Assembly (NCBI RefSeq): GCF_025377685.1
Contig: NZ_JACEHK010000003.1
Location: 148,748-212,747 of the forward strand
Origin: Anaerobacillus sp. CMMVII
Lineage (GTDB): Bacteria > Bacillota > Bacilli > Bacillales > Anaerobacillaceae
Reading direction: 5' to 3'
Length of the DNA: 64,000 nt
Shown here: piece after piece, positions 1,933 to 46,072 of the stretch
Layout: each line of letters begins with the position of its first letter
How positions within the stretch are numbered: position 1 is the stretch's first letter
Translations under genes and position numbers: made by a program
The notes under the pieces: model-generated
The model's input: only the letters and a program-made list of their open reading frames with translations
The model's database searches: none
What the model was told of the DNA's origin: nothing

Positions 1933-1990
1933 TATGATACCAATGATAAAGAAAATTCGGGGAACTCTTTGACCATCTTTAGCTATTTTT

Positions 1991-2010: not shown

Positions 2011-2026
2011 TTGTATGTATTCATAG

Positions 2027-24267: not shown

Positions 24268-24358
24268 TTATTACGTACGAAAGGGCAACCTCAACGAAAG
24301 ATGAAGGGCGCAAAGCTATAGGGGCTAAGTCTTAATGATACGCCAGCCAGCTACCGAA
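24268..24358 (+). ncRNA. Cyclic-di-GMP-I (GEMM) riboswitch
   Basis: The sequence follows the GEMM-I consensus in order: GGGCAACC, a GAAA-tetraloop hairpin (CAACGAAAGATG), GGGCGCAAAGCTATAGGGGC, TAAG, a variable loop, then GCCAGCCAGCTACCGA. It lies directly upstream of a small ORF at 24409 with AGGAGGAG in between, so c-di-GMP may control that ORF's translation. A terminator-type expression platform is not evident. A GGDEF/HD-GYP gene lies 1.3 kb away. Confidence 0.88.
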
Positions 24359-25672: not shown

Positions 25673-27507
25673 TTATGCAAGCTTGGGACGAATAGCGTCT
25701 TGCACAGTTTCTGCTTCGAATTTCTCAGGGTAGTTTTGTTTTATCATTTCGATAAATTGCGGAACATAATTCGGATCGAATTGTGCTCCAGCACATCGTT
25801 GTAATTCTTTTACCGCCTCATCAAATGTTTTGGTTGCTTGATAAGGCCTTTCGGTTGTCATCGCGTCAAAGGAATCAATGATGCACAATATTCTCGCAAG
25901 TTTTGGCGTACTTTCACCTTTTAAACCATATGGATAGCCTTTGCCATCGTATCTTTCATGATGAAGCTCGACAAGTGGGATCAGGTCATGGAGTTCTTTA
26001 TTCGTCGCAATAATTTCTTTTCCCCATGTCACATGCTTTTTAATAATTTCCCATTCAAAAGGCTCTAGCTTACCTTTTTTATTGATAATATCCCGAGGGA
26101 TTTCTAATTTTCCAATGTCATGAATAAGTGCACCTGAAATTAGCAATTTTTTTTCATAGTCACTTAAATTCAATTTAAAAGCGAAATCTCTAGCGTACTG
26201 GAACACGCGTCTACTGTGCTGATATGTATACACATCTTTATAGAGGAAAATTTTCACTTGTTGTTCTAGTAATTCTAACTCCTTTTCATGTTCTAAAAGG
26301 GTATAGGAGACTAGATTACTATCATAAAGTTGAACATTATTTTTTCCTTGTGATTTTGCGTAATACATCGCTTGATCAGCTTTTCCAATCAATTCTGCAG
26401 AGTTATAGACACTCTCATCAGTTTCGATAATACCGCATGAAAATGAAAGGCAACCATGTGGTAAAACTTCAACTCCAGAAAAATAGGAGTCATTAATCTG
26501 TTTTCGTAACTTATTTAAAAATATGATAGCCTCTGAACTTTCAACGTTTTCCATGAGAATGACAAATTCTTCCCCACCATATCTAGCAACAAAGTATTCT
26601 TTTTCATTACACCCATTCTTTAGAAGTGTTCCTATGAAATTAAGAAGCTCATCGCCTGCCAAATGGCCATGGTAATCGTTGTACTTTTTAAAGTCATCAA
26701 TATCAAGAAGTGCTAGGCTCATCTTTAAGCCTTTCTTATCTTTTAACAGATCACTTAAAACTTCCTTAAAATAGCTATGATTATATAGTCCCGTTAGACT
26801 ATCTGTATTTGCTTTTTTTGCTACCTTTTCAAATAAATTGTAATATTGCTTAAAGGCTATAGATAAAAGACCTATAACTCCGGTAAAAAGGATAAGTCCA
26901 AGCTTTTCATTAGAAATAATTAAACTCGCTAAAACAACAGACATTACTAACGTGCTTAAGTAACCAAATAATGTCTGCGAGATAATCTCTTTAAATATCT
27001 TGAAAACATCTTCTGAAGTGGAAATTAAGAAGTACAATCCAACTAATGTAACGTTAATTGCATAGTATGCAATAAGGGTTAACACATAAACATGTAGTTT
27101 TTCCAAATGAAGTGAACCAATTTCTCCACCAATAAAATAAAAGGTGTAATAGGCACCAATAGTCATTAATGAATAATTACAAAAATTAACCAAATGCTTC
27201 CACCAAAAAATCTTTGGATTTAATAGGGAAAAAATAAGGTTACCAACTAACAAAACAAATAATGTCGTCTCAAGTCCAAAAATAAAAAGGGATGCTAAGT
27301 AGACGACTGATTCCATTGTTAAGGCATTTCCTTTTGGTGGTAGAATAATCTTACAGTTTATTAAAAAATAATTGAAAGTACCAAATAAACAAAAATAGCC
27401 CAATCCATAGTGAGAAGATTAGAAAAATCAGTGTGTAAAAAAAAGGAAGATGCTCCAAGTGTAATTACCGTGATAATGTATAAATTTAAATTTGTTAGTT
27501 TTGTCAT
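25673..27507 (-). CDS. Membrane GGDEF plus HD-GYP protein (apparent frameshift near N-terminus)
   Basis: It turns over cyclic di-GMP: the GGDEF domain (YGGEEF active site, about residue 280) makes it and the HD-GYP domain (HDIGK, then HHERYDGKGYP) degrades it. The N-terminal half is a 5-6 helix membrane domain shared with the two histidine kinases at 28659 and 30898 (LLPxKGNxLxM). The uninterrupted frame begins at 27403, but ATG 27507 opens MTKLTNLNLYIITVITLG, which reaches the body only if the A6 run at 27363-27368 had seven bases. Both enzyme domains look complete. Confidence 0.85.
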
Positions 27508-28658: not shown

Positions 28659-30413
28659 TTACTCAATCATACGTAGAGGTGACTCGGTCGCTAACGTCTT
28701 CGTCTTTATCAACGGCAATGAAATTACAAAAGTAGTTCCTGCTTCAGAGCTTGAAGATAATTGAATAGACCCCTGATGATTCTCAATAATTCTTTGAACT
28801 ATTGTCAGACCCAATCCGGTACCTGTTTCTTTGGTTGTTAAGAACGGGTCAAAGATTGACTGTTGAAGGTCTTTAGGAATTCCAGGACCATTATCTTGGA
28901 TAAACAACCGATAGGTATCTTTTTCAACCTTGGAAAAAATGGTGATTGACCCATTTCCATTCATCGCATCATAGCTATTTCGAATTAGATTGTACAAGAC
29001 TTGTTTGATTTGTTTTTCATCAAGAAGCAAAGCTACATCAACTAAATTAACCTTAAATTGAATTTCGTTTCCAGAAGGTGACTGATGATAGAAGTCGTAA
29101 ATTTCTGAAATGATTGTCGATATACTTATTTCTCTAAATTTTGGACTACCAGGTTTAGCAAGGAGTAACATTTCCTCAATAATTAGGTTTATTCTATCGA
29201 ATTCACTTAACATTAACGGTAAAAAATATTTCTCCTGTTGTCGCTCTGAAAAGGATTTCTTCATCAATGTTAAAAAACCATGAATAACTGCTAATGGATT
29301 TCTAATTTCATGCGCGGCACCAGCAGCTAATCCACCTAAAACCGCCAATTTTTCAGATTGATACATCCGCTGTTCTAGTTCTGCTGTTTCGGTAATATCG
29401 ATAAAGTAAAAATTTCGCCCAATTGATTTCCTGTCTTTGTCATACAAAGGTGATTGGGATACAAGTAGCAAATGATTTCTTTCATTTGTTTTATAGGGAA
29501 CTTTGACGTTCTGACAGCTTTTTTTAGATGAAAAAATTGACCAAAAATACTCATTCCCACTTTTATCTTTCTCGGCTAGACCTTTTATTTTGTCTTCGTC
29601 AATATCTAATAAAGACTTTGCTGTGGAATTAAGAAAAAACTCGGAAGTTTTGTTTTCAACGGTAATAATTCCTATTGGGACCGAATTGAGAATCTGTTCT
29701 TGATATATCTTATCAGTAGACATTTGCTCGTATAAATGAAAGTATTTTATAAATGCCAATGATGACAAAATGATCACAAACGTAAAAATAAATGTTCCAA
29801 AGAGAGGATTATTTTCAAAAATAATTGCTAAAACAAATGCCGAGGCGAGTGTAACAATATAGTTCCCAATTGACTCCTGAGCAACTTCTTTGAGTACAAC
29901 CAATAAACTACCAAGCGAGGGGTTACTTAATAGAAAGAATAGACTTATCGCAAGAATATTAATCGAAAAATAAACCACTAATGATAGTACATAAAAAAGC
30001 GTACTAGCTAAATTGATGGAGCCAATCAGTCCACCGGAAATAATGAAAACATAATAGGAGCAAGTAACCATGATTGTAAGCATCGAAAAATTGAATACAT
30101 GTTTCCACCAGACAGTTCTCCGGTTAAAAATTGCAAATAAAAGGTTACTAAAAAATAGTAAAGATAATGTCATTTCTAATCCAAATATAAACAGCACGGC
30201 TATATAGATGGCTGTATCCATACAAAGTGAATTCCCCTTATGTGGTAGGAGAATCGTATATTTATTTAATAGAATGATAGCTATCGTTAATAACGAAAAT
30301 AACAACCAATCATTTACATTAAGTAAGTAGTTATTATGTAGAACAAATAAACTACATCCAATTAGAGAAACGATGAATATAAAAAGATAAGGCTTCGTGA
30401 TTGTTTTAAACAT
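28659..30413 (-). CDS. Membrane sensor histidine kinase (PAS, HisKA, HATPase_c)
   Basis: 584 aa. Residues 1-225 form a membrane domain with about seven helices shared with the neighbouring GGDEF protein. A PAS domain follows (about 235-345), then HisKA with HEIRNPLAVIHG, and HATPase_c with N-x-x-R-N (YNLIRNSYDAM), DNGPGIP and GTGLGL. This resembles the KinB/NtrB-type sporulation or nitrogen kinases. No response regulator is adjacent, so it may act on a shared phosphorelay. ATG start. Confidence 0.9.
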   Translation of the reverse strand: MFKTITKPYLFIFIVSLIGCSLFVLHNNYLLNVNDWLLFSLLTIAIILLNKYTILLPHKGNSLCMDTAIYIAVLFIFGLEMTLSLLFFSNLLFAIFNRRTVWWKHVFNFSMLTIMVTCSYYVFIISGGLIGSINLASTLFYVLSLVVYFSINILAISLFFLLSNPSLGSLLVVLKEVAQESIGNYIVTLASAFVLAIIFENNPLFGTFIFTFVIILSSLAFIKYFHLYEQMSTDKIYQEQILNSVPIGIITVENKTSEFFLNSTAKSLLDIDEDKIKGLAEKDKSGNEYFWSIFSSKKSCQNVKVPYKTNERNHLLLVSQSPLYDKDRKSIGRNFYFIDITETAELEQRMYQSEKLAVLGGLAAGAAHEIRNPLAVIHGFLTLMKKSFSERQQEKYFLPLMLSEFDRINLIIEEMLLLAKPGSPKFREISISTIISEIYDFYHQSPSGNEIQFKVNLVDVALLLDEKQIKQVLYNLIRNSYDAMNGNGSITIFSKVEKDTYRLFIQDNGPGIPKDLQQSIFDPFLTTKETGTGLGLTIVQRIIENHQGSIQLSSSSEAGTTFVISLPLIKTKTLATESPLRMIE

Positions 30414-30897: not shown

Positions 30898-32619
30898 TTA
30901 TGTTTTTATAAGTGGAAGGGATATAACAAATGTAGTACCTTCTTCAGAGCTTGAGTATAGTCGAATGCTACCTTGATGATTTTCAATAATTCTTTGGACT
31001 ATTGTTAGACCTAATCCAGTACCTGTTTCCTTGGTCGTTAAGAATGGATCAAAGATTGACTGTTGAAGGTCTTTAGCAATTCCAGGCCCAGTATCCTGGA
31101 TAAACAAACGATAGGTATCCTTATCAAGTTTTGAGTAAATGGTGATCGTTCCAATTCCATTCATCGCATCACAACTATTTCGAATTAGGTTGTATAAAAC
31201 TTGTTTTATTTGTTTTTCATCAAGAAGCAATGTTGTCTCATCTAAGTTAATCTTAAATTGAATTTGTTCTCCTATAGGGGACTGATTATAGAAATCAGGA
31301 ATTTCTGAAATAATATCCGAAACACTCACCTCTTTAAATTTCGGACTACTAGGTCTAGCGAGCAATAACATTTCCTCGATGATAAGGTTAATTCTATCAA
31401 ATTCACTTAACATTAATGGAATAAAAAACTTCTTTTGTTCCTTCTCCGAAAAAGAGTCTCTCATTAAGCTCAGAAAACCGTGAATTACCGCTAAGGGATT
31501 TCGGATTTCGTGGGCAGCCCCAGCCGCTAATCCACCTAAAACCGCTAATTTTTCAGATTGATGCATTCGTTGTTCTAGTTCTTCTGTATCGGTAATATCG
31601 ATAAAATAAAAATTTCTCCCAATAGATACATTGTTCTGGTCATATAAAGGAGATTGGGAAACTAATAGTAGATGCTGGTTGTCATTCGTTTTATAGGGAA
31701 CCTTGACGTTCTGACAGCTTTTTTCAGATGAAAAAATTGACCAAAAATATTCATTTTTACTTTTATCTGCGGCAGATAAATGCCTAATTTTATTTTTATC
31801 ACATTCTAATAATGACTTTGCTGTGGAGTTAAGAAAAAACTCTGAAGTTTTGTGTTCCTCAGTAATAATTCCTATTGGGATCGAATGTAGGATTTGCTCT
31901 TGATAGACCTTATCGTTAGACATTTGTTCGTATAAATGAAAGTATTTTATAAATGCCATAGATGACAGAACAATAACGAATGTGAAAATAACTGTTCCAA
32001 AGATAGGATTGCTTTCTAAAAGAATGGCTAAAACGAAGGCCAGGGCAAGTGTAATGATGTAATTTCCGATTGCCTCTTGGCCAATCTCTTTATATATTGA
32101 AAAAAAAAGCATCTCGGAATTGGATCTAAAATACATACTAACAATTCCTGTATTAATTATAAAGTAAATGGCCATTGCCAATAGATATGGAATGGTACTT
32201 GCTAGATTAATTGAACCAAGTTCTCCACCTGAAAAACTAAAAATATAATACGAACTACTAATCATAATTGCAAACATCGAAAAATTAAATAAATGTTTCC
32301 ACCACTCTGTTTTAGAGTTAAGAATAGCGTAAATTAGACTCCCTAAAAAAAGTAAGGATAAGGTTAGCTCTAAACCAAATATAAATAATGAGGCTAAATA
32401 GATAGAAGAATCCATGCAAAGCGAGTTCCCTTTATAAGGGAGAAGTATCTTATATTTATTTAAGAGAAGAATTGCTGCAAGTAATGATAGAAATAGCAAC
32501 CAATCAAAAAAGACTGCCATAGGGAAGTAGATGTCATGTATAACCAATAAACTACATCCAATAAAAAAAATGAAGAATAGGTAAATATGGACTTTTTTAA
32601 TATCAGTGAAACTTATCAT
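30898..32619 (-). CDS. Membrane sensor histidine kinase, paralogue of 28659-30413
   Basis: 573 aa with the same order of domains: N-terminal membrane domain, PAS, HisKA (HEIRNPLAVIHGFLSLM) and HATPase_c (QDTGPGIA, GTGLGL). It is strongly similar to the upstream kinase over its whole length, so the pair arose by tandem duplication and has since diverged. No partner regulator is adjacent. The start is ATG 32619. Confidence 0.9.
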   Translation of the reverse strand: MISFTDIKKVHIYLFFIFFIGCSLLVIHDIYFPMAVFFDWLLFLSLLAAILLLNKYKILLPYKGNSLCMDSSIYLASLFIFGLELTLSLLFLGSLIYAILNSKTEWWKHLFNFSMFAIMISSSYYIFSFSGGELGSINLASTIPYLLAMAIYFIINTGIVSMYFRSNSEMLFFSIYKEIGQEAIGNYIITLALAFVLAILLESNPIFGTVIFTFVIVLSSMAFIKYFHLYEQMSNDKVYQEQILHSIPIGIITEEHKTSEFFLNSTAKSLLECDKNKIRHLSAADKSKNEYFWSIFSSEKSCQNVKVPYKTNDNQHLLLVSQSPLYDQNNVSIGRNFYFIDITDTEELEQRMHQSEKLAVLGGLAAGAAHEIRNPLAVIHGFLSLMRDSFSEKEQKKFFIPLMLSEFDRINLIIEEMLLLARPSSPKFKEVSVSDIISEIPDFYNQSPIGEQIQFKINLDETTLLLDEKQIKQVLYNLIRNSCDAMNGIGTITIYSKLDKDTYRLFIQDTGPGIAKDLQQSIFDPFLTTKETGTGLGLTIVQRIIENHQGSIRLYSSSEEGTTFVISLPLIKT

Positions 32620-33527: not shown

Positions 33528-33665
33528 CCATTCACATTTCATTCACATTTTCACACACAAATACACAGTTCACATATTTTTCACCACTTCATACCACAAT
33601 TATGGATTAGTATAAGAGTAGAAAGAAGGTAAGTAACCACTAACGGTTTTTGTAGGAAGTAAAGT
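33528..33665 (+). promoter_or_regulatory. Promoter region of the cytochrome locus with TTCAC repeat array
   Basis: About six TTCAC(A) motifs lie within 65 bp (33532-33590) at roughly 10-bp steps, the same motif seen before the DoxX genes, followed by a TATAAG -10 candidate near 33610. Helical phasing suggests cooperative binding, for example by ResD. Confidence 0.55.
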
Positions 33666-34349
33666 TTGAGTGAGGTGAACACAACCGTGGGAAATGACGA
33701 GAAGATGGGGAGTAAGAAAAAAAGTGTTTTAAAAAGAACGTGGAGTTGGTTCAGATCAATTAACTGGATAGACCCAATAAATAGATGGAAGCTGCTGCTT
33801 GTTCTAATTATTGCATTTTTCGGGATTGCCTTTTCTACATATGGGGCACTCGCGGTAACGTCGACGCAATCGTTTTGTAACACCTGTCATGAAATGGCGC
33901 CAGAAAACGTTACGCACTATTCAACAACACATAGTGAATTGAAATGTGTAAAATGTCATATTGAACCAGGATTGCCGCAAACAATGAAGGGAAAGGTCAT
34001 GGCGCTAAAAGAGGTTTATCGCCATGTAACAAGAACGCAGCCTAACCCAATTCATGTGAAACACGAAGTGAGAGATGTTGTTTGCTTAAGATGCCATTCA
34101 GAAAACCGTGATGTAACACCAACAGGAGATTTAATTGTGGCGCATGACAAACACGTGAACAAAGACATCAGTTGCGTTACATGCCATAGCGGAATCGCTC
34201 ACGCCAAGGTTGTAGAACGTGGGTTAAATACAAATGACCTATTTGATTATTGGGAAATGGAAAATGCAGAAGCACTAGTTACCTTGGATTACGTTAGACC
34301 GAACATGGGAACATGTATCGAATGCCACCAACAGTACAATGAAGGTTAG
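33666..34349 (+). CDS. NapC/NirT-like multiheme cytochrome c, N-terminal part (5 hemes)
   Basis: 227 aa. After a basic N-terminus, a single membrane helix (WKLLLVLIIAFFGIAFSTYG) anchors the protein with hemes outside. There are five CxxCH sites (CNTCH, CVKCH, CLRCH, CVTCH, CIECH). NapC/NrfH proteins oxidise menaquinol and pass electrons outward. TTG 33666 follows AGGAAG; GTG 33687 is an alternative. The frame stops just after the fifth heme, and coding continues one frame over to 34777. One extra G in GAAGGTTAG would restore a single 8-heme protein. Confidence 0.88.
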   Translation: MSEVNTTVGNDEKMGSKKKSVLKRTWSWFRSINWIDPINRWKLLLVLIIAFFGIAFSTYGALAVTSTQSFCNTCHEMAPENVTHYSTTHSELKCVKCHIEPGLPQTMKGKVMALKEVYRHVTRTQPNPIHVKHEVRDVVCLRCHSENRDVTPTGDLIVAHDKHVNKDISCVTCHSGIAHAKVVERGLNTNDLFDYWEMENAEALVTLDYVRPNMGTCIECHQQYNEG

Positions 34350-34351
34350 AG

Positions 34352-34777
34352 CCTTGGACGGATAAGCATTACGCAGTAACAATCCCGCCTAATTATTTGG
34401 ATGAGTCATATGAAGCAATTCCATCTAACCAAATTTTGAAGGTAGTGGCAAAGCAAGTCGGGGACGTAGAAATTTCAATGGAATGTCAGACATGTCACAT
34501 GGAAGTAACTACTCCAACGCATCACAAACAAGTAGATTGGAATGAAAATCATAAAGCCAATGCAATTGAAGAGTTAGATCAGTGTATTACCTGTCATCAG
34601 GAAGAGAAATGGATTAGAAGAGTACGACCTCAAACGATGGAGCAGTTACTAGACCCAGATAAAGTAGATTTAAAGACATATATACCAGATGAGAAGATTG
34701 CGGAAAGTGAATCTCGCAATACTCCATTCTGCTTTACCTGCCATAGTGAAAAAATACCTGGATACACCGAAAGATAA
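34352..34777 (+). CDS. Multiheme cytochrome c, C-terminal part (3 hemes) of the split NapC-like gene
   Basis: In this frame coding-like sequence begins at PWTDKHYAVTIPPNYLDE (34352) without a start or ribosome binding site; the first TTG is 34397. It carries CQTCH, CITCH and CFTCH. The lack of any initiation signal and the continuity with the preceding ORF indicate a frameshifted tail rather than a gene of its own. If joined, the product is about 370 aa with eight hemes. Confidence 0.8.
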   Translation, partial: PWTDKHYAVTIPPNYLDESYEAIPSNQILKVVAKQVGDVEISMECQTCHMEVTTPTHHKQVDWNENHKANAIEELDQCITCHQEEKWIRRVRPQTMEQLLDPDKVDLKTYIPDEKIAESESRNTPFCFTCHSEKIPGYTER

Positions 34778-34913
34778 GGTGATACTAAATTAGTACGATA
34801 ATTTCCACTACCTCATAGTAAATACAAAATGAAACCATGGAAACTTGTTGTTCATTCTACCGATATTACCAACGTTTGGTAGATGCAAAGTATTAAAGCG
34901 AGGTGACGACACA

Positions 34914-36113
34914 TTGGATAAAGATCAGGAGCAAGAAAGAAAACAACGTGAAGAATTACAAGGTGACGACAAATATAGGCAAAGTCTTAAAAGAATTAAA
35001 GTTGCTACAATTGCACTTATTATAGTCATCGGTTTGGCTCTATCGGTAAATATAGGTGTTAACGCAACATCAACAAACTCTTTTTGTTCAAGCTGCCATA
35101 TGATGACTCCACAAGCACTGACATGGGAAGCTTCTTCTCATAGTTCGATTGATTGTAAGGACTGTCATATTAAATCAGGTATCGAAGGGAAGATCGAGGC
35201 GAAAATCGGTGGTCTATATGAACTGTACCACATGGTTACTGATTCTTATGGTACACCAATCAGGATGAAAGAATTGATACCGAATGAAAACTGTCAGAAG
35301 TGTCACAACATGGGAACAAGAGATGTCTCAGCATCAGGGGATATTATTGTTGATCATCTGATACATGACGAGAAAGAAGTTTTTTGTGTTACCTGTCATG
35401 CTGGTGTAGCACATGGGAAAGTTTCTGAAAATCGAGTCACATATAGAACTGATTTTGATCTTTGGGATGAAGATTTAGCTAATCATTTTATGACAGATAC
35501 TAAATACGTGAAGCCACAAATGGAAAAATGTATGGACTGTCATGAACTGAAACAGGCACCTTTAACTTGTGAAACGTGCCATACAACTGGAATGCTTCCA
35601 ACAGATCATAAAGAAAAGGATTTTGTTACTAAACAACATGGAAGTTTAGCGGAGAAAGACCTTTTATCATGTGATAGCTGTCATTCCTATATGTCTGAAA
35701 AGAAGATTAAAGAGCTTCAAGAGCAGAAATCATATACAAAGTTTTTAACCACTGATCCAGTTGATAAGAGTATGACGGTCCAGCAGTATGCGAAACAAAA
35801 TACTTTCTGTTCAGATTGTCACAGTGAACGTCCAGAGAGTCATAAAAGTGCCACTTACTTTTTAAATCATGGTAAACGTGTGAGCGAGAATGAGCAACAA
35901 TGTTTAACTTGTCATGAGAATGATCGTTACACACAGAATACAATTTCAAATATTACTTGTGCATCCTGCCACCCTAGTGGACACAATCCAAACTGGGAGC
36001 AAAGACATCCAACACCTTTATCAGCAACACAGAAATTTGAACGTACATGCTTAAGTTGTCATGTTGAAGAAACTTGTACCTCATGTCACGTCGATGCGAA
36101 TAGAAAAGATTAA
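34914..36113 (+). CDS. Membrane-anchored 12-heme cytochrome c (NapC/NirT-type N-terminus)
   Basis: 399 aa from TTG 34914, 7 nt after GAGGTGA. A charged cytoplasmic N-terminus is followed by one membrane helix (VATIALIIVIGLALSVNIG) and then a NapC/NrfH-like start (NSFCSSCHMMTP). Twelve CxxCH motifs are present, and the region after heme 4 is an extension not found in ordinary NrfH. It probably takes electrons from menaquinol or from the preceding cytochrome and moves them through the cell wall. It is the second gene of the cluster. Confidence 0.92.
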   Translation: MDKDQEQERKQREELQGDDKYRQSLKRIKVATIALIIVIGLALSVNIGVNATSTNSFCSSCHMMTPQALTWEASSHSSIDCKDCHIKSGIEGKIEAKIGGLYELYHMVTDSYGTPIRMKELIPNENCQKCHNMGTRDVSASGDIIVDHLIHDEKEVFCVTCHAGVAHGKVSENRVTYRTDFDLWDEDLANHFMTDTKYVKPQMEKCMDCHELKQAPLTCETCHTTGMLPTDHKEKDFVTKQHGSLAEKDLLSCDSCHSYMSEKKIKELQEQKSYTKFLTTDPVDKSMTVQQYAKQNTFCSDCHSERPESHKSATYFLNHGKRVSENEQQCLTCHENDRYTQNTISNITCASCHPSGHNPNWEQRHPTPLSATQKFERTCLSCHVEETCTSCHVDANRKD

Positions 36114-36130
36114 TCGGGAGGGGAATTAGT

Positions 36131-36868
36131 ATGGCACAAGACAGTCATAGAAAAAAAGATCCTGAAATTGAAACGAAGAATACTAGATATAACGAAACTG
36201 AAAAACAGTCACACTTCAAAAAGAAGTTTACTATTCTGCAAACCATCGGACTATTAACAATTACTCTATTATTTAGCACCGGTGGAGGGGTGGCATTAGG
36301 AAATATCTACTTTTGGAATAGTGAAGACATGAAAAGGATTAATGAACAATTAGAGTTTTACCAAGAAAAGGTAAATAATGATCCGGCAAACTTAGAGGAT
36401 CGTATTGTGTTAGGATACACGCACTTTCTAAAAGGCAACAACAACCAAGCGGTTAACGAGTTTAAATATGTCATAGATATCGACGAGAATTATTTTGACG
36501 CATATTACAATCTTGGTTTTGTCTACCTAGACGAAAAGAAATACTACGAAGCTTTGTCAATGTTTAATAAAACAGTTCAAATTGCACCAGCTGATTTTAA
36601 AGGTCACCTACAAATGGGGATAGCTCAGCGTCATCTCAACATGTATGATGCAGCAATTGCTTCATTTCAAGAAGCCAATCGTCTTGCACCAGCTAACGCT
36701 AATATTATCTTTCAAATTGGTCTAGTTGCCGAAGATATGGGTGATTACGAGAATGCTAGTGAGATCTTTAAGGATGTATTAAATTATGATCCTCTATTCC
36801 AAAAGGCAATCGATGCTTTAGAGCGTGTTCAAAAAGAACTCAAAAATGTAGGTGATAAAGATGAATAG
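36131..36868 (+). CDS. Membrane-anchored TPR protein of the cytochrome cluster
   Basis: 245 aa. One membrane helix near residues 38-60 is followed by a helical linker and about four to five tetratricopeptide repeats (for example FDAYYNLGFVYLDEKKYYEA and DFKGHLQMGIAQRHLNMYDA). TPR proteins act as assembly scaffolds; here the likely clients are extracytoplasmic cytochromes. The ATG follows GGGAGGGG. The gene overlaps the start of the NHL gene by a few bases. Confidence 0.85.
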   Translation: MAQDSHRKKDPEIETKNTRYNETEKQSHFKKKFTILQTIGLLTITLLFSTGGGVALGNIYFWNSEDMKRINEQLEFYQEKVNNDPANLEDRIVLGYTHFLKGNNNQAVNEFKYVIDIDENYFDAYYNLGFVYLDEKKYYEALSMFNKTVQIAPADFKGHLQMGIAQRHLNMYDAAIASFQEANRLAPANANIIFQIGLVAEDMGDYENASEIFKDVLNYDPLFQKAIDALERVQKELKNVGDKDE

Positions 36869-37829
36869 ACTAGCGGTATATATCCTAATGGCATCAATTG
36901 TCGTAATTAATGCGGGTGTATTTGGATTTATCTTTTCAAACCAAGCTCAAGCATTACCAACCGGTGTTAATACGGTAAATCAAAGTTCAGAAACGAAACC
37001 AGCAAGTCAAGTTTATGCTAGCTATAAAGATCCAATCGGTAGACCAATGGATGTTTTTGTTACAGCTGAAAATATGTATGTAACGGATACAAATAATCAA
37101 AAGGTTCATGTTTTTAACTTAAAAGGTGAACAATTATTTAGTTTTGGTGAAATGGGCTATGATCCTGGGCAATTCGAGTTTCCATATGGAATTTCTGTAG
37201 ATACTAGTGGGAATATTTATGTTGCGGATATGTACCATAGTAAAGTTTCAATTTTTGATGAGCAAGGAAAGTTTATTAAGTACTTTGCTGAAGAGTACAC
37301 TGAAAACGGTACATTCAAATCACCAGCAGGCTTACGTATTATCGATGAAAAGGTGTACATTACAGACGTTGAAGCGCACAAAGTATTTGTCTTTACTTTA
37401 GCTGGTGATTTACTTCTTGAAGTCGGTGAACCAGGAAGTGAAGATGGTCAATTATCAGCACCAAATGCAGTCACTGTTGATAAAGATGGTAACATTTATG
37501 TTGTTGATACTGTTAATCATAGAATTCAGCTTTTTGATAAGGAAGGGACGTTCCTACGTGGAATTGGGGAACAAACACCAGGATATAATGATGGACGTTT
37601 GGTTAATCCAAGGGGAATTGGAATTGACAGCAAAGGAAAGCTTTATGTTGTCAGTAATATGACCGACTATGTAGAGGTTTATGATCTAGAAGGAAACCAT
37701 TTATATTCCGTTGGTGGTAATGGTCAAGAACCAGGTAAACTGTACTTACCAAATGGTTTGTTTATTGACAGTAAAGATAATGTGTATGTAACAGATACCC
37801 TAAATCTTAGAATTTCTGTTTTCAGGTAA
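36861..37829 (+). CDS. Secreted NHL-repeat six-bladed beta-propeller protein
   Basis: About 322 aa. ATG 36861 lies inside the end of the TPR gene behind TAGGTGA. A signal peptide (residues 1-28) is followed by six NHL-type blades, each with a G-x-I/V-x-V-x-D-x-G-N-I/V-Y-V-x-D pattern (for example DTSGNIYVADMYHSKV and DKDGNIYVVDTVNHRI). NHL proteins accompany multiheme cytochromes in some metal-reducing bacteria; it may be a structural or docking partner. Confidence 0.88.
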   Translation: MNRLAVYILMASIVVINAGVFGFIFSNQAQALPTGVNTVNQSSETKPASQVYASYKDPIGRPMDVFVTAENMYVTDTNNQKVHVFNLKGEQLFSFGEMGYDPGQFEFPYGISVDTSGNIYVADMYHSKVSIFDEQGKFIKYFAEEYTENGTFKSPAGLRIIDEKVYITDVEAHKVFVFTLAGDLLLEVGEPGSEDGQLSAPNAVTVDKDGNIYVVDTVNHRIQLFDKEGTFLRGIGEQTPGYNDGRLVNPRGIGIDSKGKLYVVSNMTDYVEVYDLEGNHLYSVGGNGQEPGKLYLPNGLFIDSKDNVYVTDTLNLRISVFR

Positions 37830-37896
37830 GGCGCTTTCGAGACCTTACATTCTATAAGAAACATAATGAAACAATACTAAGTAATTTGAGGAGGTG

Positions 37897-37980
37897 GTGA
37901 ACAAAAGCATCTGTATAGAAAGATTACAAACTATAGGAAAAAAATCAAGGAGGGGAAACCATGAAGAAAGTTGTAATTAG
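37897..37980 (+). CDS. Possible 27-residue leader ORF overlapping the 6-heme cytochrome start
   Basis: GTG 37897 sits very close behind GAGGAGG and encodes NKSICIERLQTIGKKSRRGN then HEESCN. Its stop lies 20 bp inside the cytochrome gene in another frame, so it could be a translational coupling leader. The very short spacing from the ribosome binding site weakens the case. Confidence 0.3.
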   Translation: MNKSICIERLQTIGKKSRRGNHEESCN

Positions 37981-39280
37981 TTTATTCTTTTTATTGTTTG
38001 CGTTAGCGTTTTTTGCAACACCAAGTTTTGCATTGCATGGCGGTTTCACTGAAAATACAAACACATGCTTTAGATGTCATGATACTCACCAAGCAGATGC
38101 AAAGTCATTACTAAATAAAAATGATGTCTACCAAACATGTATGAGTTGTCATGATGGTACGACAGGAAGCCGTTCAGTAAACCGTACTGCAACGGAGTCA
38201 GTTTTCAATGAAAACAGTCCAAATGCTGCAGGTCATACTGCAAGAGTAACAGGTACATTTGCTGGAGCTTCAAGCAGTATGAGTGCCCACTTATCAAGTT
38301 CTGTAGTTAAAATCAGTGCTGCACCAGGTGGAACAACTAACCCGGATGCACCTGGTAACTGGCAAGGAACTTTCTCTTGTGATAGCTGTCATAATGCTCA
38401 TGGATCTTATAGTAGCAAAGTAGGTAGATACCTTTCTAATAATCCAAATGGAATGGTGAGTGTACCAGTAGAACAAGGCGGTAGAGCATTAAAGGATGTT
38501 CCTGTGGTAACTACGATCGATAACAACGGTCCAGAGTTTGTATTCCATAATGTTGAAGGAAAATTAACTTTAAAGAGAAAAGTACAAATCTCTAACAAGG
38601 GTCAATACACAACTTACTGGGTTGAAGACAAATCTCCTTGGATGAAAGTTACACCAAAAACTGCAATTGGTACAACAGTTACGGCTGATGTTACGATAAA
38701 CGCTAATATCAATAATGCTACTACAAACCATGTACCTGGATTGGTTCCAAACATTACAGGTGCTGGAATTAACAATATTGCAAAAGTTGATGTAGAACGT
38801 GCATATTATGTTGAAGCACCAGCTAATAAGTCGGAGTACTGGCAAAGTACAAAAGTTGTGAATGGAGCAACGGTTCCTAACATGGCTGGTATTCAATTAT
38901 CTGAGTTTTGCTCAAGCTGTCATTCAGATTACTTAGTTAAGTCTGGTGGAAGCACAAGTGTTCATAGCGGAGAGTCTTTCTATGGTCATACAACAAACAG
39001 TTCTTCTTACACATGTGTTCGTTGTCACTACGCACATGGTACAGATGCTAACTTAATGATTGATGCTAATGGTAATAGTGTATTCTCACTACAAAGAGAT
39101 CGTGGCTTAACTTTACAACAAGCACAAAGCCATATGAATGATACAAACTCTTCACTTAAGAAGTTTGTTGGAAGTTCTAGTTGTTGGGCTTGTCACAACT
39201 CATCAAAAGCTACAAATGTAGTACATGATGGTAAAGTTACAAATGACCGTCCAAAAACTGGTATGCCAGCTGGAAGATAA
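37961..39280 (+). CDS. Secreted 6-heme cytochrome c (doubled-CxxCH type)
   Basis: 439 aa. The signal peptide MKKVVISLFFLLFALAFFA ends at PSFA. Six CxxCH sites are spread in three groups (CFRCH, CMSCH; CDSCH; CSSCH, CVRCH, CWACH), and residues about 160-310 form a heme-free beta-rich domain. The opening HGGFTENTNTCFRCHDTH and CMSCHDGT recur in the 8-heme protein downstream. No membrane anchor or LPxTG is present, so it is probably released or wall-associated. GGAGGGGAAACC precedes the ATG. Confidence 0.9.
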   Translation: MKKVVISLFFLLFALAFFATPSFALHGGFTENTNTCFRCHDTHQADAKSLLNKNDVYQTCMSCHDGTTGSRSVNRTATESVFNENSPNAAGHTARVTGTFAGASSSMSAHLSSSVVKISAAPGGTTNPDAPGNWQGTFSCDSCHNAHGSYSSKVGRYLSNNPNGMVSVPVEQGGRALKDVPVVTTIDNNGPEFVFHNVEGKLTLKRKVQISNKGQYTTYWVEDKSPWMKVTPKTAIGTTVTADVTINANINNATTNHVPGLVPNITGAGINNIAKVDVERAYYVEAPANKSEYWQSTKVVNGATVPNMAGIQLSEFCSSCHSDYLVKSGGSTSVHSGESFYGHTTNSSSYTCVRCHYAHGTDANLMIDANGNSVFSLQRDRGLTLQQAQSHMNDTNSSLKKFVGSSSCWACHNSSKATNVVHDGKVTNDRPKTGMPAGR

Positions 39281-39332
39281 AAAGACTACCAATTAGCAGC
39301 AACTAATTGATAGCCTAAGCAATATAATACCG

Positions 39333-39375
39333 AGTGACTAAAGTATGGATCGTGATGTTTTGTACTTTAGTCACT
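39333..39375 (+). terminator. Long hairpin between the 6-heme and 8-heme genes
   Basis: AGTGACTAAAGTA pairs perfectly with TACTTTAGTCACT. There is no clean U-tract, so it may attenuate or protect the upstream mRNA rather than fully terminate. Confidence 0.6.
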
Positions 39376-39478
39376 TATTATAATACCCATAATAATACAA
39401 TATGAAACGATATGCTGTAAGAAATGTCACAACTATATTGTTTTAGTAGGTAATCAAAACATTAAAGGGTGATTCAAG

Positions 39479-41641
39479 ATGTTGCAAAAAAGGGAAATAC
39501 GAAAAAGCCTCGTGTTATTTCTTTGTTTTACTATATTATTATATATCAATCCATTGGCACCCACAACAATAGTTGCTTGGGGTAATGAAGTAGAGCCAAC
39601 TGAAAGAGAAAATGATCCGGAACAAACAGGGAATAACGGGATTGTTGTTTTACAAAATGTTGAGGAACAACAAGTTATTACTATAAACCCTTTAGGTGGA
39701 TCATTCTTTAATGAGTTGATATTGGTAACTGGTGAAGTGGAAAGTGTAGTTGGGGCAGAGGAAAAGTTAACTCTTATTGTTTCTGATAATGGTTCTTTTT
39801 CCAAAGAGTTAACCAGAACAATTCAACTAGTGGATGGAGCTTGGGAACATAGTTTTGATGTTTCTGAAAAAGTGAATGGTAATTTCATATTTCCAGAAGG
39901 GGAATATACAATCAAAGCAACAGTAACGGGATCAGAATTGCTAATCTCAAATGATGTTACATTTAAAGTAGACCGCACCGTACCAACAGTCGAAATTAGT
40001 CGACCATTACAAAATGGTGAGTATGTTAATAAGGCACTTATCGAAGGTAGTACTGAAATAGGGAATACTGTTGATTTATATCATGTAATTGGTGAAGTTG
40101 AAAAAAAGATCCATAGTGTAGTTGCAAATGATCATGGAGTATTTTCTTTTTTGTTAAATGATTTAGTAGAAGGTGATCATACCTTTATCATTAAAGTAAC
40201 AAATTATGCTGGAAATGTAGGAGAAACCAAAGAGTTCTCCTTTATATACGACAAAACAAGACCGTATGTTTCAACTGCTAATCTTACTCCTAAACATAAT
40301 TCAACAGGTATAGATTTTAATAGTAAAATTACGCTTAAACTAGTTGATCCTAACCTGGATATTAATAATATCCTTACCAAGGATCCTATTGAATTATATG
40401 AGCGAGGTAATTCTACAAAAATCCCAGGAAAAGTTACTTATGATGAAGCAACAAAAATTCTAACATTTACACCCAATAATAATCTAAAAGCAAGTACAAA
40501 GTATTTTGTTGTTATTAATCCAAAAATAACTGATATGGCTGGAAATCTAATTCATCAACGCAACTGGTCATTTACTACGAAAAATAACTCGGGTGTAGGA
40601 AGTCCACATGGCGGTTATTTAGAGAATACAAACACTTGTAAACTTTGTCATAGTACGCATATGGCTTCACAGCCTAAAATGCAACAAGGGAACTTAGAAC
40701 TAATTGACGATCCAAATAATTTGATAGATCCATCAAATATCCCTAATGTTATTAACGGATACTGTATGGCCTGTCATGATGGGACTGTCGCTAGTAACAT
40801 GAATAATCACCAAGGGAAAAAATCAGATCACAATAAACAAGTAGTTCGAAAAGCGGACGGAGCAGTTGTCAGTCAATCCTGTGGGAACTGCCATAATGTT
40901 CATTTAGAATCACACGCTAGTAATCCAAACCTTTTAAAAGACCACTTTGTCTTTGATCATACTGGTGTTAAAGACGCAGACGGTGTTGGGAAAATTGACA
41001 GCAGTGAACGCCTATGTGAGTCATGCCATGAATATGACTTAGGGGAAAAACTAAATGCTAATCAGTATGCGGTATATACCTACCGTAATCGGAACACAAG
41101 TTCAAGTGATTTAAAAGATAAAAATCACTATGGGTCAGCTGATGATTACCAACTGTGCTTACGTTGTCATAATAGTGATTACGCCGCGAAATACAAAGGT
41201 GTAAATAAGGCAATTGCAGATATTGAAAAGTTTTATAAAAATACCAATTCCGGTCACTATATCCTAATGGATAAAGTTAAGGATGGCAGTTTATTAAATG
41301 GAAATATGCCTTGCGCTGATTGTCATGAAACCCATAACGCGAATAATGGTAAATTAATAAAGAAGGATCTTGGTCATAATACGGAAAGTAGTACTATCTT
41401 AGAAAACTGGCCAAATGCAGGGGTAAATGCAAACTTAAACCAGAGAACCCTATGCCTATCGTGTCATAACAACGAAACTGAGCTTTATGGTATAACTGTA
41501 GGGTTACCAGAAAAAAATGCTTCAGGATCGACGATAAATGCCCATTTACCTACAAGTACAAGTGCTTGTTCAAATTGCCACGGCGGTTCTTCACGTACCT
41601 TTATGGAGGCTGTTCATTCACCGAGTAAGCGAGGGAATTAG
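39479..41641 (+). CDS. Secreted 8-heme cytochrome c with Ig-like domains
   Basis: 720 aa. Signal peptide to about residue 32; then Ig-like domains (about 60-165 and 165-260), one SbsA-type Ig-like domain (about 265-370, ending NWSFTTK), then a heme region from residue 387 with CKLCH, CMACH, CGNCH, CESCH, CLRCH, CADCH, CLSCH and CSNCH. The Ig-like stalk would place the hemes beyond the wall, fitting a terminal extracellular cytochrome. The heme region opens HGGYLENTNTCKLCHSTH, like the 6-heme protein. No sorting motif is visible at the C-terminus. Confidence 0.9.
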   Translation: MLQKREIRKSLVLFLCFTILLYINPLAPTTIVAWGNEVEPTERENDPEQTGNNGIVVLQNVEEQQVITINPLGGSFFNELILVTGEVESVVGAEEKLTLIVSDNGSFSKELTRTIQLVDGAWEHSFDVSEKVNGNFIFPEGEYTIKATVTGSELLISNDVTFKVDRTVPTVEISRPLQNGEYVNKALIEGSTEIGNTVDLYHVIGEVEKKIHSVVANDHGVFSFLLNDLVEGDHTFIIKVTNYAGNVGETKEFSFIYDKTRPYVSTANLTPKHNSTGIDFNSKITLKLVDPNLDINNILTKDPIELYERGNSTKIPGKVTYDEATKILTFTPNNNLKASTKYFVVINPKITDMAGNLIHQRNWSFTTKNNSGVGSPHGGYLENTNTCKLCHSTHMASQPKMQQGNLELIDDPNNLIDPSNIPNVINGYCMACHDGTVASNMNNHQGKKSDHNKQVVRKADGAVVSQSCGNCHNVHLESHASNPNLLKDHFVFDHTGVKDADGVGKIDSSERLCESCHEYDLGEKLNANQYAVYTYRNRNTSSSDLKDKNHYGSADDYQLCLRCHNSDYAAKYKGVNKAIADIEKFYKNTNSGHYILMDKVKDGSLLNGNMPCADCHETHNANNGKLIKKDLGHNTESSTILENWPNAGVNANLNQRTLCLSCHNNETELYGITVGLPEKNASGSTINAHLPTSTSACSNCHGGSSRTFMEAVHSPSKRGN

Positions 41642-41697
41642 GCGATATGGTTCAAGCAATTTATCCCAATCTTTAAAATCTCATTTAAAATTATTAA

Positions 41698-41728
41698 AAA
41701 GGCTCTCATAGTTGAGAGCCTTTTTTCT
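41698..41728. terminator. Bidirectional terminator at the end of the cytochrome locus
   Basis: AAAGGCTCTC/GAGAGCCTTT stem with A- and T-runs on both sides, between convergent genes. Confidence 0.88.
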
Positions 41729-43353: not shown

Positions 43354-44031
43354 ATGATTAAGAAGATTGGCTACGTCGTTTTTTCAGTACTTATTATTAG
43401 CATATTAGGGTGTTCGGCAGAAAATGAAGAGGAACCGACAGCAGAAGAAGCATTTATAGAATATGCTGCCTATTGGGAAGCGGGGAATTATGAGAAGATG
43501 TATGAACTGCTTTCCACACAGGCAAAAGAACTGTTTGCTAAAAATGAATTTTTGGAGAGAAATGCAAAAATTTATGAGGATATCCGTGCAAAGGATTTAA
43601 CAGTAACGATGTTCGTTGAGGAAATGGTGGAAGAAGAAGTTCCTGTGGATCCAGAAGAACCTGAAACTGAAAAGCTTATTACATATGATAAAAAAATGGA
43701 TACATTTGCTGGTGCAGTCTCTTTTCGATCAGAGGTTTTAATGACGTTAGAGATTGAAGAAACCGAAGCGGGAGAGGAAAAATATTGGCGCCTTAATTGG
43801 ACACCAGCAATGATTTTCGATTCGTTAGAGGTAGGAGATAAAGTAAGACTTAGTACCCTGCATCCTACTAGAGGAGAGATTTTTGATAGAAACCATATTG
43901 GCCTAGCTGTAAATGGTGAAGTCATTAATATGGGGATTGTTCCAGATAGACTTCCTGAAAACGAGCAAAAAACACTTCAAGATGCTAGTAATCTATTGCA
44001 ACTATCTGTGGAAGAAATCGAAAAAAGCTAA
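43354..44031 (+). CDS. Penicillin-binding protein (PBP3/MecA type) lipoprotein, N-terminal part
   Basis: 225 aa. The signal plus lipobox ends SILGCSA. Residues 30-150 form an NTF2_MecA-like domain (EEAFIEYAAYWEAGNYEKMY), then the PBP dimer region begins (HPTRGEIFDRNHIGLAVNG). The frame ends at GAAAAAAGCTAA; with seven A the reading continues EKKLNQSWVKPDL into the second ORF, so the two are one gene. AAAGGAGG precedes the ATG. Confidence 0.88.
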   Translation: MIKKIGYVVFSVLIISILGCSAENEEEPTAEEAFIEYAAYWEAGNYEKMYELLSTQAKELFAKNEFLERNAKIYEDIRAKDLTVTMFVEEMVEEEVPVDPEEPETEKLITYDKKMDTFAGAVSFRSEVLMTLEIEETEAGEEKYWRLNWTPAMIFDSLEVGDKVRLSTLHPTRGEIFDRNHIGLAVNGEVINMGIVPDRLPENEQKTLQDASNLLQLSVEEIEKS

Positions 44032-44060
44032 ACCAGTCTTGGGTCAAACCAGATCTATTT

Positions 44061-45413
44061 GTGCCACTAAAAGCGATTTCTAGAGATGATACACAATTAC
44101 TTGAAGAACTGATGAATATTCCAGGAGTCACCTATCAAGTGAAAAAAGCTAGAGTCTATCCTTACAATGAGGCAACGGCACATTTAACAGGCTACCTCGC
44201 GGAAATTACAGCAGAGGAACTAGAAAAGCATAAAGATAAAGGTTATACTGCGAACTCGATGATTGGAAAAGCAGGTCTTGAATTGATTTATGAAGAAAAA
44301 CTAAGAGGAGAACTAGGTGGGAAGATTTGGATCGAAACGGAAGCAGGAGTGGAAAAGGATGTTGTTGCTGAAAAACCAGCAGCTAATGGTGAGGACATCT
44401 ATTTAACAATTGATAGTAAGGTACAGACAGCCTTATATAGGCAACTAGAAGGCGAAGTTGGTACGGCCGTAGCGCTCCATCCGTTAACTGGTGAAGTACT
44501 CTCAATGGTCAGTAGTCCTACCTATGATCCAAACAAATTCGTATTAGGTATGTCTTCACAAGAGCGTACTGACTTATTGGAGGATGCAGCAAAGCCTTTA
44601 CTTAATCGCTTTACTCATACGTTTACACCAGGTTCGACGATTAAACCGATGATTGCTGCGATTGCTTTAGAAGATGGATGGGATACCAATGAGAAAAGAG
44701 CGATTGAAGGTCATATCTGGCAAAAAGATTCAACGTGGGGAAATTATAGTGTCAGACGAGTTACTGACCCAAATCACGATGTCGATCTAACAGATGCCCT
44801 AGTCTACTCCGACAACATTTATTTCGCGCAAATGGCCATCGAACTTGGAATAGAAAAGCTTGAAGCTGGCTTGCGAGAATTTGGCTTTGATGATTCATTA
44901 CCTTTTGAATATCCATTAACCAAATCAAAAATTGCCAATGAAAGAATAGATTCCGAAATGCGACTTGCCGATACCGGTTACGGACAAGGGCAAATGCTTA
45001 TATCACCGTTACATTTGGCGTTGCTATATACGACATTTGTAAATGAAGGTTCCATTCCAAAACCTACCTTACTAAAAACAGATCGTGAACTTTCCTATTG
45101 GAAAGAAGGGTTAGTAGCACCTGAGAACGCGAGCTATATTTTAGAAGGTTTAAAGGATGTCGTTCATCATCCACGAGGAACTGCAGCAAAAGCAAAAATG
45201 GCAGACATCCCTCTTGCCGGGAAAACTGGTACGACTGAACACAAAGAAGTGCAAGGTGAAAAAGGGCGAGAAACAGGTTGGTTTGTGGCTATGAATACAG
45301 ACAATCCCGAATTACTTGTTTTGCTAATGGTCGACAACATTGAAAACCGTGGCGGTAGCGGTTTCGTGGTTACAAAAGTTAAAGAGGCTTTCTTAGAGGT
45401 ATTTTCGCGATAA
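44061..45413 (+). CDS. Penicillin-binding protein transpeptidase part (continuation of 43354)
   Basis: Continues the dimerisation domain and then the D,D-transpeptidase domain that cross-links peptidoglycan. Motifs are FTPGSTIKP (S-x-x-K), YSDN (S-x-N) and AGKTGT (K-T-G). There is no ribosome binding site at its start. With the N-terminal part it forms a protein of about 687 aa, matching class B PBPs of the PbpC/MecA type. Confidence 0.9.
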   Translation: MPLKAISRDDTQLLEELMNIPGVTYQVKKARVYPYNEATAHLTGYLAEITAEELEKHKDKGYTANSMIGKAGLELIYEEKLRGELGGKIWIETEAGVEKDVVAEKPAANGEDIYLTIDSKVQTALYRQLEGEVGTAVALHPLTGEVLSMVSSPTYDPNKFVLGMSSQERTDLLEDAAKPLLNRFTHTFTPGSTIKPMIAAIALEDGWDTNEKRAIEGHIWQKDSTWGNYSVRRVTDPNHDVDLTDALVYSDNIYFAQMAIELGIEKLEAGLREFGFDDSLPFEYPLTKSKIANERIDSEMRLADTGYGQGQMLISPLHLALLYTTFVNEGSIPKPTLLKTDRELSYWKEGLVAPENASYILEGLKDVVHHPRGTAAKAKMADIPLAGKTGTTEHKEVQGEKGRETGWFVAMNTDNPELLVLLMVDNIENRGGSGFVVTKVKEAFLEVFSR

Positions 45414-45506: not shown

Positions 45507-46072
45507 ATGATATTAAAATGGTTAACAAGATTATTACTTTTTGCAGGCCTTAGTATTGTGGCTTATAGTGGCTATTAATTTGGGATGGAAACAAACAAGT
45601 GACCAAAACTCTTTCAGAAGCTAAAGAAATTGTAAGTAATGAGCGTAATACCCCAAAAGTTTTTAATCCTAAATTAAATGATATTATTGGAATCATTAGT
45701 ATTCCAAAGCTAGAAAAAGATCTTCCGATTATCGTTGGAACAGATGATGAGCAATTAAATAAAGGGGTAGGCCATTATATTGGGACGAAATATCCTGGTG
45801 AAAACGGGCAAATCCTTTTGTCAGGGCACAGAGATACTGTGTTTCGAGGGTTAGGTAATCTTCTCCATGGTGATGAAATTAAGCTTGATGTGGAGTATGG
45901 GTCATTCTCGTACGAAATCGTCAATACGTATATCGTTGATGCTGACGATACAACAGTCATTAATTTCGACTTAGACGAGGAAGTTTTGGTTTTATCGACA
46001 TGTTATCCGTTTCAATATGTTGGTGATGCACCGCAGCGGTATATTATTGAGGCAAAGCCAAGAAATAAATAA
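45507..46072 (+). CDS. Class D sortase (apparent frameshift after the membrane anchor)
   Basis: A transpeptidase that joins sorted proteins to the wall. ATG 45507 follows CGGAGG and encodes a membrane anchor (MILKWLTRLLLFAGLSIVAY). The frame then breaks at GGCTATTAATTTGG; one more T gives SGYLIWDGNKQ and the rest. Catalytic residues are His in LSGHRDTVF, Cys in VLSTCYPF and Arg in PQRYIIEA. Intact length would be about 188 aa. The window holds no clear LPxTG substrate. Confidence 0.85.

What the first reader, a model, noticed from the sequence alone, without database searches (positions are those of the whole stretch)
33666..41641. Multiheme cytochrome locus: candidate Gram-positive extracellular electron-transfer chain
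Five adjacent ORFs carry 34 CxxCH sites (5+3, 12, 6, 8). The first two proteins have a NapC/NirT-type membrane anchor; the last two are secreted, and the 8-heme one carries an Ig-like stalk. A TPR scaffold and a six-bladed NHL propeller lie between them. The order (quinol-facing, then through-wall, then outer) reads like a complete electron path for a cell with a thick wall. I recognise no named system with this combination. The link to metal or mineral respiration is inference.
Basis: partly seen in the sequence, partly recalled or inferred. Interest (0 to 1): 0.88.

Follow-up and report, generated by a model that had tools for sequence, protein, structure and literature searches.

The report
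Likely wall-crossing cytochrome wire in Bacilli
A conserved gene cluster in a Gram-positive bacterium (probably an Anaerobacillus) encodes four haem-rich proteins, one of them a relative of the Geobacter nanowire protein OmcS, and would likely carry electrons from the cell membrane through the thick wall to acceptors outside, much like a route proposed for the heat-loving genus Thermincola.

Summary
In detail: 5+3, 12, 6 and 8 CxxCH motifs lie where stated. The 5- and 3-haem ORFs are one NapC/NrfH-type gene, frameshifted in this genome; three same-genus genomes have it intact with 10 haems, a fourth with 8. The order decahaem, 12-haem, TPR, NHL, hexahaem(s), 7/8-haem recurs in 37 of 43 loci found with the hexahaem protein. 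That protein is of the OmcS family: its profile finds OmcS first in the PDB (3e-12), beats 500 shuffles that keep all CxxCH and His, and has exactly 12 invariant His in 70 of 70 members. A Thermincola ferriacetica genome carries the TPR-NHL-hexahaem module in a cluster whose order fits Tfer_0070-0075 (ImdcA...CwcA), the published candidate wall-crossing route. Added here: its spread in Bacilli, the TPR-NHL-hexahaem cassette, ResD-like upstream sites, and an Ig-stalked last protein sharing the wire protein's first three haems (perhaps an end-cap). Structure models were too poor to test polymerisation. New variant of a known kind.

The parts
33531..33574 (+). Four TTCACA half-sites (33531, 33542, 33550, 33569), all in one orientation; ResD-like (consensus recalled)
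   Evidence: 4 found vs 0.49 expected in the 350 bases upstream; enriched upstream of the first gene in relatives
33666..34774 (+). Gene A: NapC/NrfH-type membrane cytochrome, 5+3 haems, frame break near 34343-34349; likely start GTG 33687
34845..36113 (+). Gene B: NapC/NrfH-type membrane cytochrome with 12 haems; likely start TTG 34914
36131..36868 (+). Gene C: TPR protein with one N-terminal hydrophobic segment
36852..37829 (+). Gene D: NHL-repeat propeller with N-terminal hydrophobic segment; likely start ATG 36861
37961..39280 (+). Gene E: secreted hexahaem cytochrome of the OmcS/CwcA family, the predicted wire subunit
39283..39375 (+). Two hairpins between E and F, a possible processing or attenuation element that could favour E over F (inferred)
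   Evidence: fold -31.2 kcal/mol, z -5.9, 0 of 200 shuffles as good (sequence)
39479..41641 (+). Gene F: secreted cytochrome, Ig-like stalk plus 8 haems (7 conserved); front part homologous to E
41696..41725 (.). Terminator-like hairpin on both strands after F
   Evidence: number of such sites in the region not above shuffles

Best explanation
This six-gene cluster is predicted to be an operon for a wall-crossing electron conduit, in which the membrane-anchored NapC/NrfH-type cytochromes A and B would likely take electrons from menaquinol and the secreted OmcS-family hexahaem protein E would likely stack into a cytochrome wire that carries them through the peptidoglycan. Shown by sequence: gene order, haem motifs, hydrophobic anchors and signals, E's homology to OmcS, two conserved His per haem in E and in the seven conserved haems of F, and conservation of the locus. 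Inferred: E polymerises as OmcS does, with His43 (counterpart of OmcS His16) ligating a haem of the next subunit; the membrane-anchored TPR and NHL proteins, which travel with E as a TPR-NHL-E cassette, hold or build the base of the wire; F, which repeats E's first three haems behind an Ig-like stalk, plugs one end and makes the contact to the final acceptor; ResD-type control turns the operon on when oxygen is short. The final acceptor (Fe(III), Mn(IV), humics, an electrode, another cell) is not known. In this genome gene A is frameshifted; B, or the intact stand-alone 10-haem paralog on another contig, could stand in.
For: Order A-B-TPR-NHL-E-F in 37 of 43 loci, TPR-NHL-E in 41 of 43 (loci were found through E). 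E profile (70 sequences) finds OmcS first, 3.1e-12; 48.6 bits vs a maximum of 31.8 in 500 shuffles keeping CxxCH and His. Twelve invariant His in 70 of 70. B profile hits NrfH at 5.6e-15; A and B have NNT domains and one hydrophobic segment. Thermincola has the same module with hexahaems that keep all 12 His and is the genus for which the wall-crossing CwcA wire was proposed. A bacterial SH3 domain ends E of a same-genus genome. ResB and Cytochrom_C_asm genes for haem attachment are in the genome.
Against: No experiment. AF2 models are poor (E 64.9, F haem part 50.4) and the fold searches on E did not find OmcS. A single-sequence PDB search with E found nothing relevant. The window's E carries no wall-binding domain. 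A is broken here. No OcwA or PdcA counterpart was looked for. Only 5 of 7 genomes of the genus show the 12-haem gene.
Confidence: 0.66

Rival explanations
1. Same conduit, opposite current: electrons would be taken up from Fe(II), a metal surface or a partner cell and passed to the quinone pool.
For: NapC/NrfH-type and wire proteins have no built-in direction (general knowledge). A Dethiobacter strain with NHL/TPR-cytochrome clusters oxidises Fe(II) (passages of PMC10376724).
Against: ResD-like sites suggest use as a respiratory outlet when oxygen is short; kin in Thermincola are studied for anode and Fe(III) respiration.
Confidence: 0.12
2. Wall-embedded relay without polymer: E works as single molecules or short stacks in the wall, and F is the reductase.
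For: No structural proof of a filament; AF2 model inconclusive; short cassettes with a single E gene are common (20 of 43 loci have the plain A-B-T-N-E-F order).
Against: Counterpart of the OmcS His16 kept in 70 of 70; up to four E copies in one locus.
Confidence: 0.3
3. A reductase for a soluble compound (nitrite, sulfite, tetrathionate or the like), with F as the catalytic subunit.
For: Octahaem count of F; NrfH-like A and B resemble the electron donors of such enzymes.
Against: F's seven conserved haems each have two invariant His, leaving no open site among them; no octahaem reductase family; a weak profile hit to an eight-haem nitrite reductase (0.15) covers only 60 positions; two NrfA genes lie elsewhere.
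Confidence: 0.06
4. A decaying locus in this genome: gene A has lost its frame and the operon may be on its way out.
For: Frame break in A and loss of its last two haems; an intact 10-haem paralog elsewhere.
Against: B to F are open with conserved haem ligands; an 8-haem A is intact in L067, L020 and L035; a penicillin-binding protein gene 10 kb away is split too, so assembly error is possible.
Confidence: 0.15

Closest known systems
Thermincola ImdcA-CwcA extracellular electron transfer pathway (Tfer_0070...0075; TherJR_1117...1122)
   Same: NapC-type decahaem, 12-haem, TPR, NHL and hexahaem genes in the same order in a T. ferriacetica genome (L085); hexahaems keep all 12 ligands. The match of L085 to Tfer_0070-0075 is inferred from haem counts and gene count, not from locus tags.
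   Different: L085 has a 17-haem gene after the 12-haem one and three TPR-NHL-hexahaem sets, and no F there; the window has F, which matches F-like genes in other far genomes (L082-L084). PdcA and OcwA were not sought here.
OmcS cytochrome nanowire of Geobacter sulfurreducens
   Same: Six haems in the same order, profile match over nearly the whole chain, His ligand positions.
   Different: Low identity; extra beta-rich part predicted between haems 3 and 4; Gram-positive wall instead of outer membrane; TPR-NHL partners.
NrfH/NapC quinol dehydrogenases
   Same: Anchor plus NNT domain in A and B; B profile hits NrfH.
   Different: Long multihaem C-terminal extensions, 10 and 12 haems in all.
NHL/TPR-cytochrome clusters of Dethiobacter alkaliphilus
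   Same: Multihaem cytochromes with NHL and TPR genes, some raised under ferrihydrite (passages of PMC10376724).
   Different: Other cytochrome sets; no OmcS kinship noted in the passages seen.

Membership tests
OmcS/CwcA hexahaem wire family (gene E) | Six CxxCH and homology to OmcS beyond the haem motifs | tested here: met
OmcS/CwcA hexahaem wire family (gene E) | Twelve axial His, including the counterpart of the inter-subunit ligand (OmcS His16, number recalled) | tested here: met
   12 invariant His in 70 of 70; His43 falls on His16. That it ligates another subunit is not shown
OmcS/CwcA hexahaem wire family (gene E) | OmcS fold | tested here: inconclusive
   AF2 64.9; OmcS not among fold matches
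OmcS/CwcA hexahaem wire family (gene E) | Polymerises into a conductive filament | not testable with these tools
   needs cryo-EM
Thermincola ImdcA-CwcA pathway | NapC-type membrane cytochrome and CwcA homolog in one cluster with TPR and NHL | tested here: met
Thermincola ImdcA-CwcA pathway | Periplasmic PdcA and surface OcwA | not tested
   no search with those proteins
Thermincola ImdcA-CwcA pathway | Electron transfer to a solid acceptor | not testable with these tools
   needs culture work
NapC/NrfH family (A, B) | N-terminal membrane anchor, NNT domain, Met near haem 1 | tested here: met
   Met87 of B in 21 of 22
Octahaem reductases (nitrite, tetrathionate, hydroxylamine type) for F | A catalytic haem with an open site or non-CxxCH attachment; family match | tested here: not met
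   two invariant His for each of seven conserved haems; no family match. The eighth, unconserved haem of the window's F was not judged
Flavin-based EET (Listeria type) | EetAB, PplA, Ndh2 operon | not tested
   not searched in this genome

The most novel reading that the evidence does not exclude
Ordinary soil and soda-lake Bacilli build OmcS-type cytochrome nanowires through their thick walls with a portable cassette: a membrane-anchored TPR-NHL pair assembles the wire, one to four hexahaem isoforms give wires of different make, and an Ig-stalked heptahaem protein that carries the wire protein's own first three haems plugs the end with the same donor histidine and is the outer contact.
Probability: 0.38. 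Interest if true: 0.85.

Novelty: new variant of a known kind. Interest (0 to 1): 0.62.

Why it matters
How electrons cross a 20-80 nm Gram-positive wall is open; the published candidate CwcA comes from Thermincola and could not be kept in solution (passages of PMC7911101). The same cassette in many named Neobacillus, Mesobacillus and related strains and in Anaerobacillus makes the question testable in mesophiles. It would bring cytochrome-wire electron transfer to Bacilli, where the work seen here points to flavins (PMC10373932, section 16), cysteine (PMC9769522, listing only) or pilus-like appendages with a possible cytochrome part (PMC7969598, passages). It also offers a possible cap and a possible assembly pair for OmcS-type wires.

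Tried and rejected
Octahaem-reductase reading of F: rejected on ligand counts and family searches. F as a full OmcS homolog: rejected; its profile gives OmcS 12.2 bits, reached by 8 of 500 His-keeping shuffles; only 84 columns at the front match E. Structure route: AF2 of E (64.9) and of F's haem part (28 of the 38 rows of A2, 50.4); Foldseek on E gave 0 matches at E<=0.001 and the second look aligned mainly the N-terminal helix to unrelated chains. OmcS did not appear, which says nothing either way. F was not fold-searched. Rex as regulator: its site is an inverted repeat (start of abstract of PMC2883068 in the listing), the window sites are direct repeats; ResD rests on a recalled consensus, and the 8 papers listed (of 203) showed no occurrence of TTTGTGAAT. 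First guess that the 12-haem gene of L011 is ImdcA: dropped, as ImdcA has 10 haems; cluster L085 fits. Histidine kinases upstream: left out of the system without a test in relatives. Absence from print: searches (0 papers for multiheme plus Neobacillus; 11 of 11 listed; 20 of 41; 20 of 93; 20 of 661; 8 of 9; 12 of 585) listed no paper on a multihaem EET cluster in Anaerobacillus, Neobacillus or Mesobacillus; PMC10373932 (abstract, passages, section 16) describes an Anaerobacillus genome and reports none there. [quoted passage not shown] whether any is a Bacilli cwcA could not be told. The library holds only CC-licensed papers.

Rows dropped before counts: E alignment A1 has the window and 69 of 72 E hits (three fragments left out); A2 the window and 37 of 40 F hits (L003:19701, L020 and L039 left out); A3 the window and 21 of 46 B hits; A4 both window pieces, the paralog and 9 of 41 A hits.
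Full report
WHAT IS THERE. Five stop-to-stop frames of 60 aa or more in the window carry CxxCH motifs, with 5, 3, 12, 6 and 8; shuffled proteins of the same make-up give 0.01-0.07 on average and at most 2. Between the 12- and 6-haem genes lie a TPR and an NHL gene. Spacing fits one operon: B-TPR 17 bases, TPR-NHL overlapping, NHL-E 131, E-F 198. The E-F gap folds into two hairpins (-31.2 kcal/mol, z -5.9, 0 of 200 shuffles as good). A terminator-like hairpin lies on both strands after F, though the region has no more such sites than shuffles (3 vs 4.6).

THE FIRST TWO ORFS ARE ONE GENE. The 3-haem ORF is in another frame and continues the ortholog alignment where the 5-haem ORF stops. Same-genus copies are intact: 10 haems in L064, L065 and L066, 8 haems in L067. 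The window copy, like L067, L020 and L035, lacks the last two haems. An intact stand-alone 10-haem paralog, 58% identical over 227 residues, sits on another contig (L068:8787-10070). A penicillin-binding protein gene at 43354-45413 is split too, so assembly error cannot be excluded.

WHOSE GENOME. The window is G000:C3:148748-212747 of a 4.87 Mb genome in 21 contigs. Genome G001 of the same genus has a contig of 267,958 bases, the length given for the contig of an E homolog named Anaerobacillus alkaliphilus; the genus is very probably Anaerobacillus. The 12-haem gene is found near full length in 5 of 7 genomes of that genus, own included (not in G004 and G005; G005 and G006 are 80% and 62% complete). 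Of 54 genomes of other families in that call, 52 have no match and 2 only a short NrfH-length one.

CONSERVATION. A scan of named genomes with E found 43 loci. The order A-B-TPR-NHL-E(one to four)-F is in 37 of 43 and TPR-NHL-E in 41 of 43 (adjacency judged by BLAST hits only, and conditional on E; genes B and E are in pieces in L014). Hosts are mainly Neobacillus, Mesobacillus and 'Bacillus sp.', with Evansella, a Paenibacillus-labelled strain, a Thermincola ferriacetica MAG, a Dethiobacter MAG and unnamed Bacillota. Even sampling gave E-family matches (E<=1e-20) in 28 of 398 genomes of the phylum (22 of 267 genera), the matches outside the own genome all lying beyond its class, and in 6 of 299 of the order (3 of 116 genera). 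Of ten far loci read, nine have NHL and TPR beside E. In a tree of 60 NHL proteins a clade of 43 rows (95/94) holds the Bacilli rows but one (an extra copy in L066 on a long branch); the Thermincola rows lie outside; deep forks are unsure.

GENE E IS OF THE OmcS FAMILY. A single-sequence PDB search gave only one unrelated weak row, but the profile of 70 sequences finds OmcS first, at 3.1e-12, in one alignment over profile 92-375; the next row, 6r2q, is matched in short repeated pieces. The OmcS score, 48.6 bits, is not reached in 500 shuffles keeping CxxCH (maximum 22.5) nor in 500 keeping CxxCH and His (maximum 31.8). Twelve His are invariant in 70 of 70, six in CxxCH and six others (26, 43, 110, 147, 343, 359), and no other column is His in 80% or more. 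His43, 110, 147 and 359 fall on OmcS His 16, 110, 147 and 335. His343 was not placed on a His (a Lys in the fitted alignment, with His309 close by), and His26 lies before the printed part of OmcS (OmcS numbers from its motif list, as the fitted alignment drops insertions). In OmcS one haem is ligated by a His of the next subunit (passages); that it is His16 is recalled. Some homologs carry extra domains: a C-terminal bacterial SH3 in A. alkaliphilus and in 4 of 120 homologs listed, fn3 in 1 and Big_5 in 1 of the 70. The window's E has none.

GENE F. Ig-like domains (residues 188-367) precede the haem part. Fourteen His are invariant in 38 of 38, seven proximal and seven others; the haem at 513 is not conserved. 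The E and F profiles align over 84 columns, the first three haems, at 99.6% probability, including the counterpart of the donor His (F His394). F as a whole does not match OmcS above shuffles. So F looks like an OmcS-type front half on an Ig stalk with another back half; that it caps or docks onto the wire is inference.

A, B, TPR, NHL. A and B carry one hydrophobic segment and an NNT domain. B's profile hits NrfH (5.6e-15); it has ten invariant His besides the twelve proximal ones, and Met87 in 21 of 22. TPR and NHL have N-terminal hydrophobic segments. In the Thermincola cluster L085 the TPR-NHL-hexahaem set occurs three times in a row, which suggests that the pair serves the hexahaem protein beside it.

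THE NAMED RELATIVE. In T. ferriacetica, Tfer_0070 (ImdcA, 10 haems, membrane), Tfer_1887 (PdcA), Tfer_0075 (CwcA, 6 haems, wall) and OcwA were proposed as an electron path; CwcA was modelled on OmcS as a wire of about 4 to 16 molecules through the wall (passages of PMC7911101). Genome G269 has a contig of the same length (69,295) as the T. ferriacetica MAG contig behind L011, with NHL proteins at zero tree distance. Its other cluster, L085, reads 10h-12h-17h-TPR-NHL-6h-(TPR-NHL-6h)x2-NHL: six genes from decahaem to first hexahaem, as from Tfer_0070 to Tfer_0075; the decahaem has an NNT domain. All three hexahaems have the twelve His of E. NHL genes near multihaem cytochromes are also reported in Dethiobacter, Geoalkalibacter and Desulfovibrio ferrophilus (passages).

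REGULATION. TTCACA half-sites number 75 in 44 upstream regions vs 14.2 expected. At least one lies upstream of A in 45 of 46 cases vs 80 of 286 other intergenic upstream regions (the sequences are related, so its p-value of 3e-21 is not literal). They resemble ResD sites as recalled (TTTGTGAAT). The genome has ResB- and Cytochrom_C_asm-type genes for haem attachment.

VERDICT. A well-conserved, probably functional locus of a known kind in a new class of hosts, with added parts (F, the fixed TPR-NHL-E cassette). The electron path is inferred from anatomy and kinship; polymerisation, direction and acceptor are untested.

Noticed in passing
window 43354-44031 and 44061-45413 (+): A penicillin-binding protein gene appears as two frames (MecA_N/PBP_dimer, then PBP_dimer/transpeptidase), a second split gene near gene A.
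   Followed up: partly
window 24274-24358 (+): c-di-GMP-I riboswitch (59 bits) with no ORF of 100 aa or more after it on its strand up to gene A; a GGDEF-HD protein lies at 25673-27403 (-).
   Followed up: partly
window 28659-30413 and 30898-32619 (-): Two similar membrane histidine kinases side by side, divergent from the cytochrome operon.
   Followed up: no
L068:8787-10070 (G000 contig C1): Stand-alone intact 10-haem paralog of gene A, away from any other multihaem gene in the 19 kb read.
   Followed up: partly
L070:4900-12000 (G000 contig C1): Two NrfH-NrfA pairs in a row, then Cytochrom_C_asm genes.
   Followed up: partly
window 45599-46072 and 47966-49068 (+): A sortase and a thioredoxin-like/DsbB pair downstream of the cluster; link not tested.
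   Followed up: no
window upstream of 14732, 15597 and 20736 (+): Three TTCACA half-sites each, like the site cluster before gene A; possible shared control.
   Followed up: no
L066:2828-3778 and 1549-2799 (-): A second, very divergent NHL gene and a second hexahaem gene beyond the usual cluster in genome G003.
   Followed up: no
L082:1825-5490, L083:12512-16180, L084:1171-5019: Giant cytochromes of about 1220-1280 aa with 10-13 CxxCH next to F in three far genomes.
   Followed up: no
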